A stretch of 39,599 nt of DNA from Armatimonadota bacterium (GTDB lineage: Bacteria > Armatimonadota > Hebobacteria > GCA-020354555 > CP070648), in the NCBI GenBank assembly GCA_020354555.1, contig CP070648.1, forward strand, positions 3,473,519 through 3,513,117. Direction: 5' to 3'. The notes under the pieces are model-generated. The model made no database searches. It was not told the DNA's origin and saw only the letters and a program-made list of their open reading frames with translations. Both the position numbers and the translations under genes were made by a program. This document shows positions 33,436 to 39,599 of this stretch, in pieces (the first letter of the stretch is position 1; every line of letters starts with the position of its first letter).

Positions 33436-35424
33436 CTACTGCGGCGCGGTATAGACCGACACCGGCTTCCACACCCCGCCCAGAGTCGTCTCAGCGAACG
33501 CGCGGACCGCGAGCACGTTCGGCTCGCCAAAGCGCAGCCTGCCGGTGACGTCAATCTCGAACGGCTCGCGATGAGTGTCAACGCCGGCAGCGCGGTCGAG
33601 CAGCTTCTCGCCGTTGAGGTAGATCGTACCCCCTTCGTCGAGGGCGCCGACCCGCACGATGATGCGCCGCCCACTCCACTTCTCGTCAACGGTGAATCGC
33701 ACGCGTCCCCACGCGACCGCGTCGCTGAGACCGCGCAGCGGGCCGTCCTGCCTGTACCACGGGCTGTCGGTGCGCGCTTCGATCCATGCGCTGTCGTCGA
33801 AATCGGATGTGTGCCATCCCTCGGATTCGCCTTTCTCATCGGCGTCAACCGCAACGCGCCAGGGGATCGGCACGACCGTCACGAGTTCGGCGCCCGGCGG
33901 ATGACCTAGCCCCCGCGGCTCCAGCGCCTGCATCGCGCGGTCCTGAACCGCGGGCGACGAATCCCGCAGGGCCGCATCCAGCGTCTCAACCACGCCCGCT
34001 ACGTCGAGCCGACCCGCGGCGTCCACCGCAGTCATGCGCATCTGCTCGTCCCCGCTCGCCAGCACGCCGCGCAGCGCCGCGAGACCCCTCGGCCCGCCGA
34101 TCTCGCCGATCGCGCGGATCGCAGCTACGCGCAGGTCCTGGTCGTCGGCGGCGAGCACGCCGCGCAGCGGCTCGATCGCATCCGCAGCGCCGGTGTGGCC
34201 CAGGGCGTTGACCGCCGCCATTCGGAGTTCCCCATCCCCGCTGTCAAGCAGGTCGGCGAGAACCGCGATCGCGTCCGCACTGCCGGCGCGCCCGAGCGCT
34301 GCGGCCGCCGCGACGCGCAGCTCTGCATCGTCACTTCGCGCCAAGTCGCTGAGCCCCGGCACCAGCGCGGGCTGGCTCAGACGCTCGATGGTCGCGATGG
34401 CCAGCGGCCTGGCGTTGACGTCACCTGAAGCAGCCGTTTGGGCGAGTGCGTCAACCAGTCGCGTATCCTCCACGGCGCTGAGCGAATCCGCCATGAGTCC
34501 TCCCAGCCCAGGGATTTGCTTGTAATCCAGACGATTCACGAGACAGACTCGCTGCTCCGGGGGCCCAGCCAAGCAGTCGGTCGGCAGAACGTTCCCCGGG
34601 CGCACGACCGTCTCGTGCACCTCGTCGCCGCGGACGGAAACCAGCATGTAGTGGTGGAACGAGCCCCGGGTCGGGTCGTCGCCGATCTCCGCCCCGCCGC
34701 CGCCGCTGATGTAGTAGCGGATGCCGTCCACTTCGGGCAGCTCGCGATAAATGTGAGCATGGCCGGCGATGACCGCGCGCGTCGGATACCGCCGGAGCAG
34801 TTCGTGCACGCGCGTCCACTGGCGCGGGTTGCTAAACACCGGCTGGTGGAGGAAGACGAAGATGTGGCGCGCGTTGGTATTCGCCAAGTCCTTGCGCAGC
34901 CATTCGAAGTGCTCGTCGCTGATGAGCCCGCCGTAACCCGCCTGGTCTGAGTTCATGGCGATAAAGTGGCAGCCGCCGTAGTCGAACGAGAACCAGATTG
35001 GGCCGGCATATTCCAGCCACAGGCGCTCGTGCATGTCATTCGCGACGTCGTGGTTGCCGACGACCGGGAAGAACGGCACCTCGGACATGTTGACGACCTC
35101 GATGAACCCGTCCCACATGCGGCGCATTTCCGGCTCTTCGGCGTAGCCGGTGCTGAGGAGGTCGCCGACATCAATCAGAAACGCCACATCGAGCGCGTTG
35201 GCCTCGCGGACGATCTGGCGGAACGTCTCCGGCTGCTCGAACCGGATCCAGTGGCGCGTGTCGCCGACGACGAGGAATGTGAATCCGTTGACGTCCTGGT
35301 CGCGCGCGCTCAAATCCGCCAGTGCCTGGTCAATCAGCTTATCCGCGGCCGAAACGGGCAGGGCGCAAGCGGCAACCGCGGCAAGCGCGATCATGATGAC
35401 GATGCTCGTCGTGCGGCTCTTCAT
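33436..35424 (-). CDS. Secreted calcineurin-like phosphoesterase with HEAT repeats and C-terminal GH2-type beta-sandwich
   Basis: A protein of 662 residues. Residues 1-27 are a signal peptide (IALAAVAACALPVSA). The metallophosphoesterase domain (about 45-300) has all metal motifs: VVGDTRHW, DVGDLL, VVGNHD, FLHQP and IAGHAHIYR. Five or six HEAT/PBS-lyase-like repeats follow (about 340-520), each with a pattern like DDAELRVAAAAALG. The end (about 530-662) is a beta-sandwich with GRVRFTVDEKW, GTIYLNGEKL and LAVRAFAETTLGGVW, as in the N-terminal domain of GH2 enzymes. It is probably a periplasmic or extracellular phosphatase or phosphodiesterase with a carbohydrate-binding module. The substrate is unknown. 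ATG 35424 is chosen for the signal peptide it creates. Confidence 0.82.
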   Translation of the reverse strand: MKSRTTSIVIMIALAAVAACALPVSAADKLIDQALADLSARDQDVNGFTFLVVGDTRHWIRFEQPETFRQIVREANALDVAFLIDVGDLLSTGYAEEPEMRRMWDGFIEVVNMSEVPFFPVVGNHDVANDMHERLWLEYAGPIWFSFDYGGCHFIAMNSDQAGYGGLISDEHFEWLRKDLANTNARHIFVFLHQPVFSNPRQWTRVHELLRRYPTRAVIAGHAHIYRELPEVDGIRYYISGGGGAEIGDDPTRGSFHHYMLVSVRGDEVHETVVRPGNVLPTDCLAGPPEQRVCLVNRLDYKQIPGLGGLMADSLSAVEDTRLVDALAQTAASGDVNARPLAIATIERLSQPALVPGLSDLARSDDAELRVAAAAALGRAGSADAIAVLADLLDSGDGELRMAAVNALGHTGAADAIEPLRGVLAADDQDLRVAAIRAIGEIGGPRGLAALRGVLASGDEQMRMTAVDAAGRLDVAGVVETLDAALRDSSPAVQDRAMQALEPRGLGHPPGAELVTVVPIPWRVAVDADEKGESEGWHTSDFDDSAWIEARTDSPWYRQDGPLRGLSDAVAWGRVRFTVDEKWSGRRIIVRVGALDEGGTIYLNGEKLLDRAAGVDTHREPFEIDVTGRLRFGEPNVLAVRAFAETTLGGVWKPVSVYTAPQ

Positions 35425-35631
35425 AGCTCTCTCTCCGTTGGGGAACTGACGTACGGATGCCAATAGGGTTCGGCGTGGATCACGATCGGCCCTGCCCGAG
35501 TGCATGGGGCGTGGGGCGGCCTGCCTGGTGCTTCTCGCACGGATCGCATTCCGCGGCCGCCCACTTCAGGGAGCCCGCAGAAGAACTCCTCTACGACGAG
35601 AGCCTCTCGCTACCGGCGCGGCGAGACAGCT

Positions 35632-36342
35632 CTAGCCGCCGAACACGCGCAACCAGTCGTGGAGCAGGAAATCGAGGCGGTCTATGAGCAGGGACATGCG
35701 GCCCATCACGGTGTTGCCGAAGATGGCGCCGAAGGCGACCATGAGCAGCCAGCGACCGAGGCGCGCGCTGCCGCGGATCGCGGGATGCCGCTGCTCGAAG
35801 GAGAAGAAGAAGTAGCTCATCACGGTGATAAGCGTGATGAAGAACAGGAGGTTGTTGACCAGAACGTACGGGGGCCTAGACGTCCACAGGGGCTTGAATG
35901 AGGCGGCCATCTGAGGCGCGAGTTCGGTGATGAAGCCGACAATGCCGAGCCCGGCGCCGAGGCCCATGAAGACGCCCACGGCGAGGCGGTTCATCCAGGA
36001 GTAGCGCCTGGAGTACACGGTGTAGAACATCGTGCCCATGAGCAGGGCGAAGATGAAGTACCATCGCCCCTGCTCGACGAACGGCGTCCACCACTTGGGG
36101 TGCAGCACCTGGGTGATAACGATGTAGAACCCATAGCCGGTGGCAAGGCCGATGAAGACATGCTCAAAGAAGCGGAAGACGACATTCTCGCGATAGAGGA
36201 TGGAGTAAATGGCGAGGGTGCAGATCGCCGCGAGCCAGACGCCCAGGTTGGCCGCGAGCACATGATGGCGGACGCCGAGATACGCCGCTACCGCGAATGC
36301 CGCAAGCCAGATGAGCAGCCTCGTGATGACCCGCGCGTTCAT
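35632..36342 (-). CDS. Polytopic membrane protein of the DUF6754 block (about 7 TM)
   Basis: A 236-residue hydrophobic protein with about seven predicted helices, the first beginning TRLLIWLAAFAVAAYLGV. A conserved-looking loop NVVFRFFEHVFIGLATGYG follows helix 2, and an SYFFFSFEQRH segment precedes the last helix. I recognise no named transporter or enzyme family. Its start overlaps the upstream stop (ATGA) and it is the last gene of a six-gene - strand block, so it is probably a membrane subunit of the same complex. Confidence 0.75.
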   Translation of the reverse strand: MNARVITRLLIWLAAFAVAAYLGVRHHVLAANLGVWLAAICTLAIYSILYRENVVFRFFEHVFIGLATGYGFYIVITQVLHPKWWTPFVEQGRWYFIFALLMGTMFYTVYSRRYSWMNRLAVGVFMGLGAGLGIVGFITELAPQMAASFKPLWTSRPPYVLVNNLLFFITLITVMSYFFFSFEQRHPAIRGSARLGRWLLMVAFGAIFGNTVMGRMSLLIDRLDFLLHDWLRVFGG

Positions 36343-37184
36343 GAGGCGCCGAGCCTCCTGCCGGGCGCTTCACCGCGGCGGCGAGCCCGGAAGTAGAGGA
36401 TGTTGCCCAGCACGATCAGCGCGATCATCAACAGGTGAGCGGAGGACTGCGCGGGCATGCGCTTGAGGGCATCGCCTTCGTAGCCGACGAGCTGCTCGTA
36501 CTCCGCGGCGCCCGCCAAGCCCTTAAGCACGCCGACGATCTGGCCCGCGTCGTAGTAGGGAAACGCCTCCGGCGCCATGACGCCCGTCGGCGCGTAGCCG
36601 ATAGGCGTCCGATAAATGCCGTAGACGAAGCGGATGTACGTGGGTACCGTGAAGGAAGGCGTGATCTCCACCACGAGCCCGACGTCCCGAATGGTCTCGA
36701 TGCCGTTCATCACCGGGACTTGCCGGATCGGCGTGTGGAAGACGTCCTCGCCGATGGTTTTGGGGATGTTCTTGGTCAAGGCGCGGATCATGTTGGCCTG
36801 GCCGGTCTTGTAGCCCCAATTCACCCAGTCCTCGCCATAGCGGCAGCCGTACTCGTCTTGGATGCGCTCACCGATCTGCTGACCGAGCTGCGGGCCGGGA
36901 GGATAGGCCCAGCCGAGGATGGCGAAAGGCTTGCCCGCCTTGAAGCAGTGGCGCATGATGGCCTCGGTCTGCGGGCCGTTCTCGCCGCGGGTGCCCGGCT
37001 CCCAATTGCACGAGAGGACGATGATCTTGCCATCGGGCACGGCATCCACGGCGTGATAGAGATCGAGGGCCGGTTTGCTGACGTACATGACCGCCTTGAT
37101 TTTGGCCACGACGAATACGGCGGTGGCGACCGCGAGGAGCAGCCAGATGATGCGCCGCGACCAGAACTGACGATTCTGCTCCAC
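36339..37184 (-). CDS. Membrane-anchored protein of the DUF6754 block (TM - soluble domain - TM)
   Basis: A 281-residue protein. An N-terminal helix (residues about 12-32, RIIWLLLAVATAVFVVAKI) and a C-terminal helix (about 248-266, LLMIALIVLGNILYF) flank a soluble alpha/beta domain with KIIVLSCNWEPGTRGE, a HCFKAGKPFAILG strand and YDAGQIVGVLKGLAGAAEYE. The layout mirrors that of the DUF6754-like neighbour, suggesting paired subunits. The start is GTG 37184, sharing its G with the TAG stop of the preceding gene (TAGTG) and preceded by AGGAG. Longer in-frame starts only read through a shadow of the neighbour gene. Function unknown. Confidence 0.75.
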   Translation of the reverse strand: MEQNRQFWSRRIIWLLLAVATAVFVVAKIKAVMYVSKPALDLYHAVDAVPDGKIIVLSCNWEPGTRGENGPQTEAIMRHCFKAGKPFAILGWAYPPGPQLGQQIGERIQDEYGCRYGEDWVNWGYKTGQANMIRALTKNIPKTIGEDVFHTPIRQVPVMNGIETIRDVGLVVEITPSFTVPTYIRFVYGIYRTPIGYAPTGVMAPEAFPYYDAGQIVGVLKGLAGAAEYEQLVGYEGDALKRMPAQSSAHLLMIALIVLGNILYFRARRRGEAPGRRLGAS

Positions 37185-38134
37185 TACAGCTCCTGCTCGA
37201 AGAATGCGCCCCGCTCCAGGCTGAGCCAGATGCGAAGCGACATGGCGAGGTAGCCAACGAGGATGCCGAACAGTACAGCGCGCAGGCCGGCCATGCTGAT
37301 GACGCCGAGCGTCCAGTTGGCCATCGCCTCCATCCGCAGACTCGACAACGGGCCGCTCAATGGCAGGGCGCGGGTCAGCCACATCCCGAGCGGCACCTGC
37401 CCCAGCATGCAAATGAAGGCCGCGATCATCATGAAGGCCGCCTCCGCCGAGCGAATCCGAAAGGCTCTAAATGCGGCGGTAGCCATGTAGAACGCGAGCA
37501 CCGAGAACAGCGTGGAGTTGAGCGCGACGTACATGCTGTTGAAGAGGTAGTCGTGGAAAACCTGCTGGACGGTGAGGTCGTGTACCCACAGGAAGCGCCG
37601 GATGATGACGTTCGCCTCCGGCCCGTACGTCGCCCACAGCCCGAACACGGCCATTGCCAGGAATGCAATGAAGAAGGCGATGCTGTTGTAGTAGCCCGGC
37701 CGGCGCGCGGCGATGTTCTTGCCGTGCACCAGGCTCAGGCTAAACGCGGCGAGGAAGAAGGTGAACCCAGCGATGACCGAGACGGCGTTGCCCACGGTCA
37801 CCACCATGGGCGAGAATGGATTGCCGCGGCCGGCGCGCCAGAAAAAGATTGCGCTCCGTCCCGGCAGGTAGAACTCCAGCACGTAGAAGAGCCCGGCGGT
37901 GAAAGTGGCGATGATGACGACGCGCTTCTTGGCGGCCGGGGGCAGGCGGTGGATGCCGAACATCAGCGCGATCCAGAGCGCGACCGACGCCGCCACTGCG
38001 GCATAGAACGCTGCTCCGCGGGTTGGCTCGAACAGCGGTCGCAGTACCTGACTCAGCCGCCACAGCAGGACCGCGGCAGCCAGCCCCCCGCCGAGGTGAA
38101 CACCTATGACTATCGCCCACTTGCGCGCCCGCAT
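37184..38134 (-). CDS. Polytopic membrane protein of the DUF6754 block (about 8 TM)
   Basis: A 316-residue integral membrane protein with about eight helices spread evenly over its length. Recognisable stretches are VLEFYLPGRSAIFFW after helix 3, SLVHGKNIAARRPGYYNSI between helices 4 and 5, and FLWVHDLTVQQVFHDYLFNSMY before helix 6. No named family is recognised. The YNS and HD polar residues at membrane borders could be functional sites. It starts 20 bases after the DUF6754-like gene and its stop overlaps the next start, so co-translation is likely. Confidence 0.75.
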   Translation of the reverse strand: MRARKWAIVIGVHLGGGLAAAVLLWRLSQVLRPLFEPTRGAAFYAAVAASVALWIALMFGIHRLPPAAKKRVVIIATFTAGLFYVLEFYLPGRSAIFFWRAGRGNPFSPMVVTVGNAVSVIAGFTFFLAAFSLSLVHGKNIAARRPGYYNSIAFFIAFLAMAVFGLWATYGPEANVIIRRFLWVHDLTVQQVFHDYLFNSMYVALNSTLFSVLAFYMATAAFRAFRIRSAEAAFMMIAAFICMLGQVPLGMWLTRALPLSGPLSSLRMEAMANWTLGVISMAGLRAVLFGILVGYLAMSLRIWLSLERGAFFEQEL

Positions 38135-38154
38135 CTATCCTCTCTCTCGCGCCG

Positions 38155-38946
38155 CTAGGCCCCTGGGTTAAGCATCGAAACCAGCCACTTGCTGATGAAG
38201 TGAAGGGGCGTGCCGGGAGCCGCGGTCGCAGTTCCGCAGAGCACCAAGAGCACGAGCAGACCCTTGCTGATATCCTGGCCGACGAGGCTTCCGAGCAATG
38301 TCGGCTCACGCGTGAGGTACGCGCTGGCGGCATAGAACTCATCGCCGATAATGGTGTAATCGCACGCGGCAAGGAAGAACGGTATCTGCGTCGTCGCCGG
38401 AGTTCCCGCGATCTGAATGGCGCCGACCTCCTGACCGGTTTCGGCGAGCAGCAGCGATTCGGCGTAGAAATAGCCGAAGAAGAAAGTCGAGGCGACCTGC
38501 TCGCGGTTGATAATGCCCATGACGCCGGCCGCAAAGGCGAACTGCTGGTCGGATAGAAAGCGGACGTCATCGGAGCGGAACGCTTCCGGCTTCCCTTCCG
38601 ACGCATATGCTTCGCGCACCAGTTGCTCCGCGATGGCAAACACGACGGGGTCCACCGCCGGCACGATCAAGCGGTTGCCGTAGCGCGCAGCGAGCGCGGC
38701 CACGTACTGCGCGATGGCGAGTCCCTGAATGGTGTCTATGTCAACACCGCCGAGGCCGGTGGAGAACAACATCGGCCGGCCCATCTCGGTGGCGCGTCCG
38801 ACCGCCTCGTCTATCGCCGCCAGCCCCGGGATGCGGCGGATGAAGAGTTCCCTGCCTCCGCGCGCGGAGAGAATCGTGTACAGGATGACGACGCTGATGA
38901 TGCCTGTGATCGCGACGTGCAGATAGTTGGCGTGCTCCAAGCTCAT
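38155..38946 (-). CDS. DUF6754-like membrane protein
   Basis: A 263-residue protein: an N-terminal helix (about 8-26), a soluble alpha/beta domain, and a hydrophobic C-terminal segment (about 225-240, GLLVLLVLCG). The middle carries the features I associate with DUF6754: RRIPGLAAIDEAVGRATEMG, TGLGGVDIDTIQGLA, FLSDQQFAFAAGVMGI, FFFGYFYAESLLLAETG and PFFLAACDYTIIGDEFYAAS. The acidic and glycine residues in these stretches suggest a real active or binding site, but no biochemical role is known to me. It sits centrally in the six-gene block, 4 bases after the 101-residue gene. Confidence 0.82.
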   Translation of the reverse strand: MSLEHANYLHVAITGIISVVILYTILSARGGRELFIRRIPGLAAIDEAVGRATEMGRPMLFSTGLGGVDIDTIQGLAIAQYVAALAARYGNRLIVPAVDPVVFAIAEQLVREAYASEGKPEAFRSDDVRFLSDQQFAFAAGVMGIINREQVASTFFFGYFYAESLLLAETGQEVGAIQIAGTPATTQIPFFLAACDYTIIGDEFYAASAYLTREPTLLGSLVGQDISKGLLVLLVLCGTATAAPGTPLHFISKWLVSMLNPGA

Positions 38947-38950
38947 TGCA

Positions 38951-39256
38951 TCACTTGTCCGCGCGGCGCGCGTCGCGCTCCTGGGCCATGGTCTCGATGC
39001 GCGCGATCAGCATGTCGAGCGTCTCCTCGGAATCGAGGACGCGCGACAGCGCCTCGACATCCTTGGCGGGCATGAAGGCGCCGAGCACCGGCAGCGCGAA
39101 GAGCGCCCCCTGCCCCGCGAAGAACGTGAGCGGGCGGCTTGACTCCAGGAACACAACGGCCGGCGTCTCCAGGCGGCGCTCGGCGACGACGCGGGCGACG
39201 CGCTCAATGACGCGCTCGCGCAGTTCTTCTTCTTTCGGCTCCAACTGCGTCGCCAT
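38951..39256 (-). CDS. Small conserved-looking protein of the DUF6754 block
   Basis: A 101-residue protein. The first 30 residues form a charged helix (EPKEEELRERVIERVARVV), then an amphipathic segment with ESSRPLTFFAGQGALFALP, which could sit at a membrane surface, then a helical end (LDSEETLDMLIARIETM). ATG 39256 is used; it overlaps the upstream stop as TGATG, and longer starts only extend into the neighbour's frame. I know no name for the family. Its position directly before the DUF6754-like gene suggests an accessory or assembly factor. Confidence 0.65.
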   Translation of the reverse strand: MATQLEPKEEELRERVIERVARVVAERRLETPAVVFLESSRPLTFFAGQGALFALPVLGAFMPAKDVEALSRVLDSEETLDMLIARIETMAQERDARRADK

Positions 39257-39599
39257 CAGGTAACGCCGCACCCCCGGATATGATAACGAATCGCGTCGAG
39301 CACGGCCTCGCCATCCTCTCCCAACCATACGTATATGCCGCGATACGCCTCAAGGCGCGAGGGCCGAGCGAGCGGGCTCAACTTGACGCCGTGTGCATCG
39401 CGGTAACAGCGCTTAACGTCGGCCCACTTGAGGTGCCGCAGCGACAGGAAATTCCGAAACGAGACGCCCTCGGCGTCGATTCGGTAGGTAATGGGCAGCA
39501 GAAACTCGGCGACCGCCGCAAAGACCAAGAGGCCGGTGACGGCGGCCGCGAGGGGATGAAGCCAGAGGAAATAAGCGACGGCGGCGCTCGCTGCGATGA
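39256..39599 (-). CDS. Membrane-anchored PH-like domain protein (5' partial)
   Basis: The frame is open to the right edge of the window, so the N-terminus is missing. The visible part starts with a hydrophobic hairpin (AYFLWLHPLAAAVTGLLVF, then AAVAEFLLP) and continues as a bacterial PH-like domain: YRIDAEGVSFRNFL, HLKWADVKRCYRDAHGV and IYVWLGEDG. This order, two helices then strands with IDxxGVxF...WxDV, is typical of bPH-domain membrane proteins. It is the first visible gene of the block and couples to the 101-residue gene by TGATG. Its role in the complex is unknown. Confidence 0.6.
   Translation of the reverse strand, partial: IAASAAVAYFLWLHPLAAAVTGLLVFAAVAEFLLPITYRIDAEGVSFRNFLSLRHLKWADVKRCYRDAHGVKLSPLARPSRLEAYRGIYVWLGEDGEAVLDAIRYHIRGCGVT

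What the first reader, a model, noticed from the sequence alone, without database searches (positions are those of the whole stretch)
35632..39599. Six-gene DUF6754-centred membrane block, a candidate undescribed complex
Seen: a PH-like membrane protein, a 101-residue protein, a DUF6754-like protein, an 8-TM protein, a TM-soluble-TM protein and a 7-TM protein in one - strand run. TGATG, TAGTG and ATGA overlaps at three junctions and gaps of 4 and 20 bases at the others imply coupled, stoichiometric translation. No gene has a known function, and no typical transporter ATPase or regulator is in the visible part. Inference: a multi-subunit membrane machine, perhaps for transport, envelope maintenance or signalling.
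Basis: partly seen in the sequence, partly recalled or inferred. Interest (0 to 1): 0.7.

Follow-up and report, generated by a model that had tools for sequence, protein, structure and literature searches.

The report
Widespread undescribed eight-gene membrane system
Six genes at the end of this bacterial sequence encode the membrane part of an undescribed molecular machine that is inherited as one unit across several bacterial phyla, together with an ATP-using partner protein encoded elsewhere in the genome.

Summary
In detail: six coupled minus-strand genes, with DUF6754 at 1.6e-98. The window ends at an assembly gap. A 141-bp exact overlap leads to the missing start of the PH-like gene and to an upstream VanZ gene, an order also seen in a same-family relative. 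The order PH-like/S101/DUF6754/TM8/TMSOL/TM7 recurs through Armatimonadota, while its flanks are not conserved. In some Armatimonadota and in other phyla, two more genes sit inside the operon between S101 and DUF6754: a GlmL/MutL-type ASKHA ATPase (GLML) and a barrel-sandwich/KOW-like protein (LIP). In this genome those two form a separate locus. In 101 genomes of the phylum, the same eight lack GLML, LIP, DUF6754 and TMSOL together. In two other phyla the four-gene core DUF6754-TM8-TMSOL-TM7 has repeatedly been duplicated as a cassette. Good-confidence models give DUF6754 and TMSOL an alpha/beta domain between two TM helices, predicted on opposite membrane faces. No PDB, defence, phage or plasmid match was found, and no open-access paper mentions DUF6754. 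Best reading: an undescribed chromosomal membrane complex, with GLML/LIP as its cytosolic ATPase module. The system is well supported; its biochemical function is not known, and the ATP-driven mechanism is inference.

The parts
39256..39599 (-). PH-like two-TM membrane protein, cut by the window end; 154 aa when continued through the 141-bp overlap to C1:1572755 (L005). Possible bacterial PH fold, below cut-off.
   Evidence: homologues in the same place in 38 of 57 loci with enough upstream DNA
38951..39256 (-). S101, 101-aa protein with one hydrophobic stretch, no known family
   Evidence: same place in 48 of 57 loci
38155..38946 (-). DUF6754 (PF20539): TM 8-29, alpha/beta domain 40-212 predicted cytoplasmic, TM 215-242; many near-invariant polar residues (R51, E54, E169, Q187, C195, D196, E203, D225, K228)
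   Evidence: Pfam 1.6e-98; alignment A2; AlphaFold2 mean pLDDT 86; conservation
37184..38134 (-). TM8, eight-TM protein, predicted N-in/C-in
   Evidence: no Pfam or NCBIfam family; next to DUF6754 in 50 of 52 loci
36339..37184 (-). TMSOL: TM - alpha/beta domain predicted extracytoplasmic - TM
   Evidence: AlphaFold2 mean pLDDT 93.5; no recurrent Pfam family in 37 members
35632..36342 (-). TM7, polytopic protein with a strongly conserved C-terminal part (GRWxLM..FGAxFGxTVMxRMxLLIxR)
   Evidence: no recurrent Pfam family in 23 members

Best explanation
The block encodes the membrane part of a conserved, chromosomal, undescribed protein complex. The core is a four-protein module: DUF6754, TM8, TMSOL and TM7. 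S101 and the PH-like protein are accessory subunits. A cytosolic ATPase module, GLML (a GlmL/MutL-family ASKHA protein) plus LIP (a barrel-sandwich protein with a KOW-like end), acts with it and is encoded in the same operon or at a second locus. SHOWN: the gene unit, the shared presence and absence, the four-gene cassette duplications, and the ATP-site motifs kept in this genome's GLML. INFERRED: the products bind each other; GLML hydrolyses ATP and, through LIP, acts on the cytoplasmic alpha/beta domain of DUF6754; TM7 and TM8 carry that change across the membrane to the outer alpha/beta domain of TMSOL. I think the job is housekeeping at the cell envelope (an ATP-activated membrane enzyme or transporter) and not defence or a mobile trait. 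About 0.85 for the eight-component system, about 0.3 for this ATP-coupled mechanism; the confidence given below is for the system with GLML/LIP as its cytosolic module.
For: Order PH/S101/DUF6754/TM8/TMSOL/TM7 recurs across Armatimonadota; flanking genes are diverse, no family in more than 5 of 46 or 42 neighbours. GLML and LIP sit between S101 and DUF6754 in L088, L090, L092, L093, L094, L096, L098, and in L204, L205, L207. In this genome they are a separate pair at C1:4101206-4103523. Over the same 101 genomes DUF6754 is in 87, LIP 92, MutL 93, TMSOL 88, and the same eight lack all four; DUF6754 x LIP Fisher p=1.3e-7, eight shared absences p about 1.5e-8 or less. All 20 DUF6754 genomes tested by handle have LIP. 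Glutamate mutase is absent from 100 of the 101, so GLML is not there for that enzyme. Two DUF6754 genes 3.1-3.6 kb apart in 17 genomes outside Armatimonadota; in the four read, the whole cassette is duplicated. GLML motifs DCGSTTTK and VDIGGATTD present. Absent from phage and plasmid collections.
Against: No physical interaction was shown or modelled. Several sets lack parts: L095, L097, L099-L102 have only DUF6754-TM8 together, L094 and L098 have no TMSOL/TM7 after TM8, so not all eight are always required, or some lie elsewhere. In many Armatimonadota LIP is not next to GLML within 1.5 kb. PH is missing from most sets outside Armatimonadota. Relatedness of genomes inflates co-occurrence p-values; the eight absences are perhaps 3-4 independent losses. 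The topology is from hydropathy only.
Confidence: 0.7

Rival explanations
1. A membrane enzyme with an ASKHA reactivase. DUF6754 is the catalytic subunit (invariant Cys/Asp/Glu/Gln/Arg/Lys cluster), and GLML uses ATP only to repair or activate it, as the GlmL/MutL chaperone is said to do for glutamate mutase.
For: Near-invariant polar residues in the DUF6754 alpha/beta domain; MutL described as a chaperone that reactivates glutamate mutase (PMC4682846); GLML follows the block and not glutamate mutase.
Against: No enzyme fold is recognised: no PDB hit at E<=1e-3, best Foldseek query TM-scores about 0.35 or below; no substrate gene is consistently linked.
Confidence: 0.3
2. An ATP- or ion-driven transporter or export machine, with TM7 and TM8 as the path, DUF6754 as the inner and TMSOL as the outer domain.
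For: Two polytopic proteins with conserved polar residues; alpha/beta domains predicted on both faces; dedicated ATPase candidate.
Against: No transporter family matches; ASKHA proteins are not known to me as transport motors; no linked binding protein or substrate gene.
Confidence: 0.25
3. A six-gene complex on its own; GLML and LIP share its distribution only because both are ancient and are lost together in reduced lineages.
For: In most Armatimonadota the two loci are apart, and GLML and LIP often apart from each other.
Against: GLML and LIP lie inside the operon in several phyla; the lacking genomes are large and mostly complete (G007 99%, G057 96%, G004 and G019 93%), not reduced; all four families are missing in the same eight.
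Confidence: 0.15
4. Independent housekeeping genes kept together by chance or by shared expression, with no complex.
For: No interaction data exist; the operon alone does not prove binding.
Against: Order kept across phyla while flanks change; four genes duplicated as a cassette; shared losses.
Confidence: 0.07

Closest known systems
Pfam PF20539 (DUF6754), uncharacterised family
   Same: The central protein is a full member (1.6e-98).
   Different: The family names one domain only; no function, and no paper in the searched library names it. The eight-gene unit is not described there.
GlmL/MutL family (PF13941, NCBIfam NF040745 and TIGR01319), accessory protein of B12-dependent glutamate mutase
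   Same: The partner GLML is a MutL-family ASKHA protein (4.2e-126) with both phosphate motifs.
   Different: About 600 aa with a C-terminal extension; scores 226 against a cut-off of 475 for GlmL and 175 against 204 for the GlmL family model; no glutamate mutase in 100 of 101 genomes.
RnfC of the Rnf ion-translocating complex
   Same: LIP residues 73-183 weakly resemble RnfC 48-157 (E=0.028), a soluble part of a membrane complex; Pfam also sees a biotin/lipoyl-type fragment.
   Different: Weak match to one domain only; none of the six window proteins matched any recognised family above its Pfam cut-off except DUF6754; LIP has a KOW-like C-terminus instead.
SIS-domain sugar-phosphate proteins (MurR/RpiR) as fold neighbours of DUF6754
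   Same: Foldseek probability up to 0.99 for an alpha/beta sandwich.
   Different: E>=0.006, TM-score 0.30-0.35 by query and 0.46 at best by target; generic Rossmann-like resemblance, no family membership.

Membership tests
DUF6754 (PF20539) | Score above the curated cut-off over the domain | tested here: met
   329 bits against 27, profile positions 11-246 of 257
Undescribed DUF6754 membrane system (this report) | DUF6754, TM8, TMSOL, TM7 adjacent in that order | tested here: met
Undescribed DUF6754 membrane system (this report) | GLML and LIP encoded in the same genome | tested here: met
   C1:4101206-4102006, C1:4149731-4150696 and C1:4102381-4103523
GlmL, glutamate mutase accessory protein (for the partner GLML) | Score above the GlmL equivalog cut-off | tested here: not met
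   226 bits against 475 for the L092 homologue
GlmL, glutamate mutase accessory protein (for the partner GLML) | Glutamate mutase E subunit in the same genome | tested here: not met
   PF06368 absent from this genome and from 100 of 101
Bacterial PH domain protein | Score above the bPH_6 cut-off | tested here: inconclusive
   16.6 bits against 22; 4 of 32 members weakly
Rnf/Nqr complex | Recognisable Rnf/Nqr subunits next to the RnfC-like domain | tested here: not met
   No such family among the block proteins; only a weak RnfC match in LIP
ABC or other classical ATP-driven transporter | P-loop nucleotide-binding subunit in the unit | tested here: not met
   No such Pfam match in the six genes or in GLML/LIP
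Anti-phage defence system | Match to a PADLOC model | tested here: not met
   None for five block proteins (PH-like not scanned), LIP and GLML; near-universal presence in the phylum also argues against it
Single physical complex | Subunits bind each other | not testable with these tools
   Only single-chain models can be made

The most novel reading that the evidence does not exclude
A new class of ATP-driven membrane machine in which an ASKHA (actin/Hsp70-like) ATPase, not a P-loop ATPase, drives a membrane core with one alpha/beta domain on each face; an ancient housekeeping system of several little-studied phyla.
Probability: 0.25. Interest if true: 0.85.

Novelty: categorically new. Interest (0 to 1): 0.62.

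Why it matters
A gene set kept by 86% of the sampled genomes of one phylum and by most of another, lost only as a whole and duplicated as a cassette, is probably an important cell function that has no name. It gives a role to test for a large subfamily of GlmL/MutL proteins that occur without glutamate mutase. It also makes eight 'hypothetical' families testable together in place of one by one.

Tried and rejected
Literature: no paper for DUF6754 or PF20539, and searches on GlmL/ASKHA or on Armatimonadota operons gave nothing relevant beyond one legend. PDB by sequence: none for DUF6754, only noise for TMSOL; GLML none. PDB by fold: no hit at E<=1e-3 for either model. A common origin of DUF6754 and TMSOL was considered because their models have the same TM-alpha/beta-TM order; hhalign gives 4-7% probability, so it is not claimed. 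A first all-against-all hhalign run used a wrong option and is disregarded. Defence and phage families: none. Plasmids and phages: none. Lipoate link: LplA and glycine dehydrogenase flank the operon in L204/L205 and LplA is near LIP in L136, but LIP has no conserved lysine at the expected place in alignment A1 and the neighbours are not general, so a lipoyl function is rejected for now. Real GlmL function: rejected.

Full report
OBSERVATION. DUF6754 is certain (PF20539, E=1.6e-98). The PH assignment is weak: bPH_6 at E=0.0078, below cut-off, and 4 of 32 homologues at best 0.0022. The other four proteins have no Pfam or NCBIfam family above its cut-off, and scans of 23 TM7 and 37 TMSOL homologues found no recurrent family.

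THE WINDOW END. Base 39599 is the end of an assembled piece: 100 N follow it in the genome (L004 8119-8218). The last 141 bases recur exactly at C1:1572755-1572895, right after another 100-N gap, as overlapping assembly pieces do. That piece supplies the start of the PH-like gene (154 aa in all) and, upstream on the same strand, a VanZ-family gene. A genome of the same family (L018, G008) has VanZ directly before PH, S101 and DUF6754, so this continuation is right, and the sequence that follows across the N gap in the scaffold is not the true neighbour.

SYNTENY. I scanned 68 related loci from named genomes. By their titles they are mainly Armatimonadota, plus Cloacimonadota, WOR-3, Planctomycetaceae and 'Thermotogota' records. 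The order PH, S101, DUF6754, TM8, TMSOL, TM7 recurs. Where enough DNA is held, S101 is present in 48 of 57 loci, PH in 38 of 57, TM8 in 50 of 52, TMSOL and TM7 in 43 of 52 each, and most exceptions lie outside Armatimonadota. Most gaps are overlaps or under 30 bases. The neighbours on either side share no family in more than 5 of 46 upstream or 42 downstream genes, so the unit has clear edges.

MISSING PARTNERS. In L088, L090, L092, L093, L094, L096 and L098 two genes lie between S101 and DUF6754. One is a roughly 600-aa MutL/GlmL-family ASKHA protein (PF13941, 4.2e-126), called GLML here. The other is a roughly 372-aa protein with a biotin/lipoyl-type barrel-sandwich fragment, a weak RnfC resemblance and a KOW-like C-terminus, called LIP here. 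DUF6754 then has an N-terminal extension with an FN3 domain. In this genome GLML and LIP are a separate pair (C1:4101206-4103523, with the GLML start on another piece at 4149731-4150696), and GLML keeps DCGSTTTK and VDIGGATTD.

CO-OCCURRENCE. In the same 101 genomes of the phylum DUF6754 is in 87, LIP in 92, MutL in 93 and TMSOL in 88. The same eight genomes lack all four: G004, G007, G019, G033, G045, G057, G065, G097. They fall in four families (three in f8, two in f25, part of f11, one in f2), so probably three or four losses. The Fisher test gives p=1.3e-7 for DUF6754 x LIP, and the chance of nesting the eight absences is 1.5e-8 or less for each pair; relatedness makes these optimistic. 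Twenty of 20 genomes reached through DUF6754 loci carry LIP. The glutamate mutase E subunit is absent from 100 of 101, and GLML is far below the GlmL cut-off, so GLML belongs with this system and not with glutamate mutase.

BREADTH AND MODULES. DUF6754 is found in 41 of 149 genomes of the phylum of L094 (Planctomycetota by record title) and 54 of 60 of the phylum of L097 (WOR-3 by title), in none of 14 control genomes, and not in phages or plasmids. In L204 and L205 the operon is S101-GLML-LIP-[DUF6754-TM8-TMSOL-TM7]x2; L206 and L210 also carry two cassettes, the copies 32-58% identical. Two DUF6754 genes lie 3.1-3.6 kb apart in 17 genomes, the length of one cassette. Duplication as a cassette marks the four proteins as the membrane core.

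STRUCTURE. The DUF6754 model (mean pLDDT 86) is TM, alpha/beta domain, TM; TMSOL (93.5) has the same plan. Charge distribution puts the DUF6754 domain inside and the TMSOL domain outside, which is a prediction. Neither has a PDB match at E<=1e-3. Profile comparison gives only 4-7% probability that the two are homologous.

MECHANISM. Shown: unit, partners, co-loss, cassette, ATP-site motifs. Inferred: GLML binds and hydrolyses ATP, LIP links it to the inner domain of DUF6754, and TM7/TM8 transmit to TMSOL outside. Whether the output is catalysis, transport or upkeep of the envelope is open. The near-invariant residues of DUF6754 (R51, E54, E169, Q187, C195, D196, E203, D225, K228) point to a binding or active site.

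KNOWN OR NEW. No paper in the searched open library names DUF6754 or PF20539; subscription journals were not searched. I rate it categorically new as a system, because no known kind fits; one subunit belongs to a known protein family (MutL).

Noticed in passing
window 39459-39599; L004 8119-8218; L005 9656-9896: The window ends at an assembly gap; a 141-bp exact overlap identifies the true continuation at C1:1572755, where the next genes are VanZ (PF04892) and a 734-aa phosphodiesterase-family protein (PF01663). The genome is one scaffold made of pieces joined by 100 N.
   Followed up: yes
L107 5213-5554 and L108 6738-7079 (C1:4101206, C1:4149731): The GLML gene of this genome is split over two assembly pieces that overlap by 342 bp at 98% identity, probably strain variation.
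   Followed up: partly
window 33436-35505 (-): Secreted-looking metallophosphoesterase with HEAT repeats and a weak GH2-like sugar-binding domain, directly downstream of TM7; not conserved next to the block.
   Followed up: partly
L204 3144-3905 and 13933-15381; L205; L136 2743-3612: Lipoate ligase (LplA-type) and glycine dehydrogenase subunit genes flank the operon in two related genomes, and an LplA-type gene lies near LIP in another; a possible lipoate link.
   Followed up: partly
L086 and L087: Two DUF6754 proteins of roughly 940-1010 aa on either side of TM8-TMSOL-TM7 in Cloacimonadota; weak LIP-like stretches occur in 961- to 1071-aa frames of the same genomes, perhaps LIP-like domains inside large proteins.
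   Followed up: no
L095, L097, L099-L102: In one group of WOR-3/'Thermotogota' records only DUF6754-TM8 remain together, often followed by a gene starting MLR.DVEF...FTVSQKP; LIP is elsewhere and in three of the loci looked at next to a cation-antiporter-like gene.
   Followed up: no
L160 (G063), L161 (G055): Two genomes carry an additional, shorter MutL protein (467-483 aa frames) scoring much higher than the system's own GLML, probably true GlmL; only G063 has a glutamate mutase E match.
   Followed up: partly
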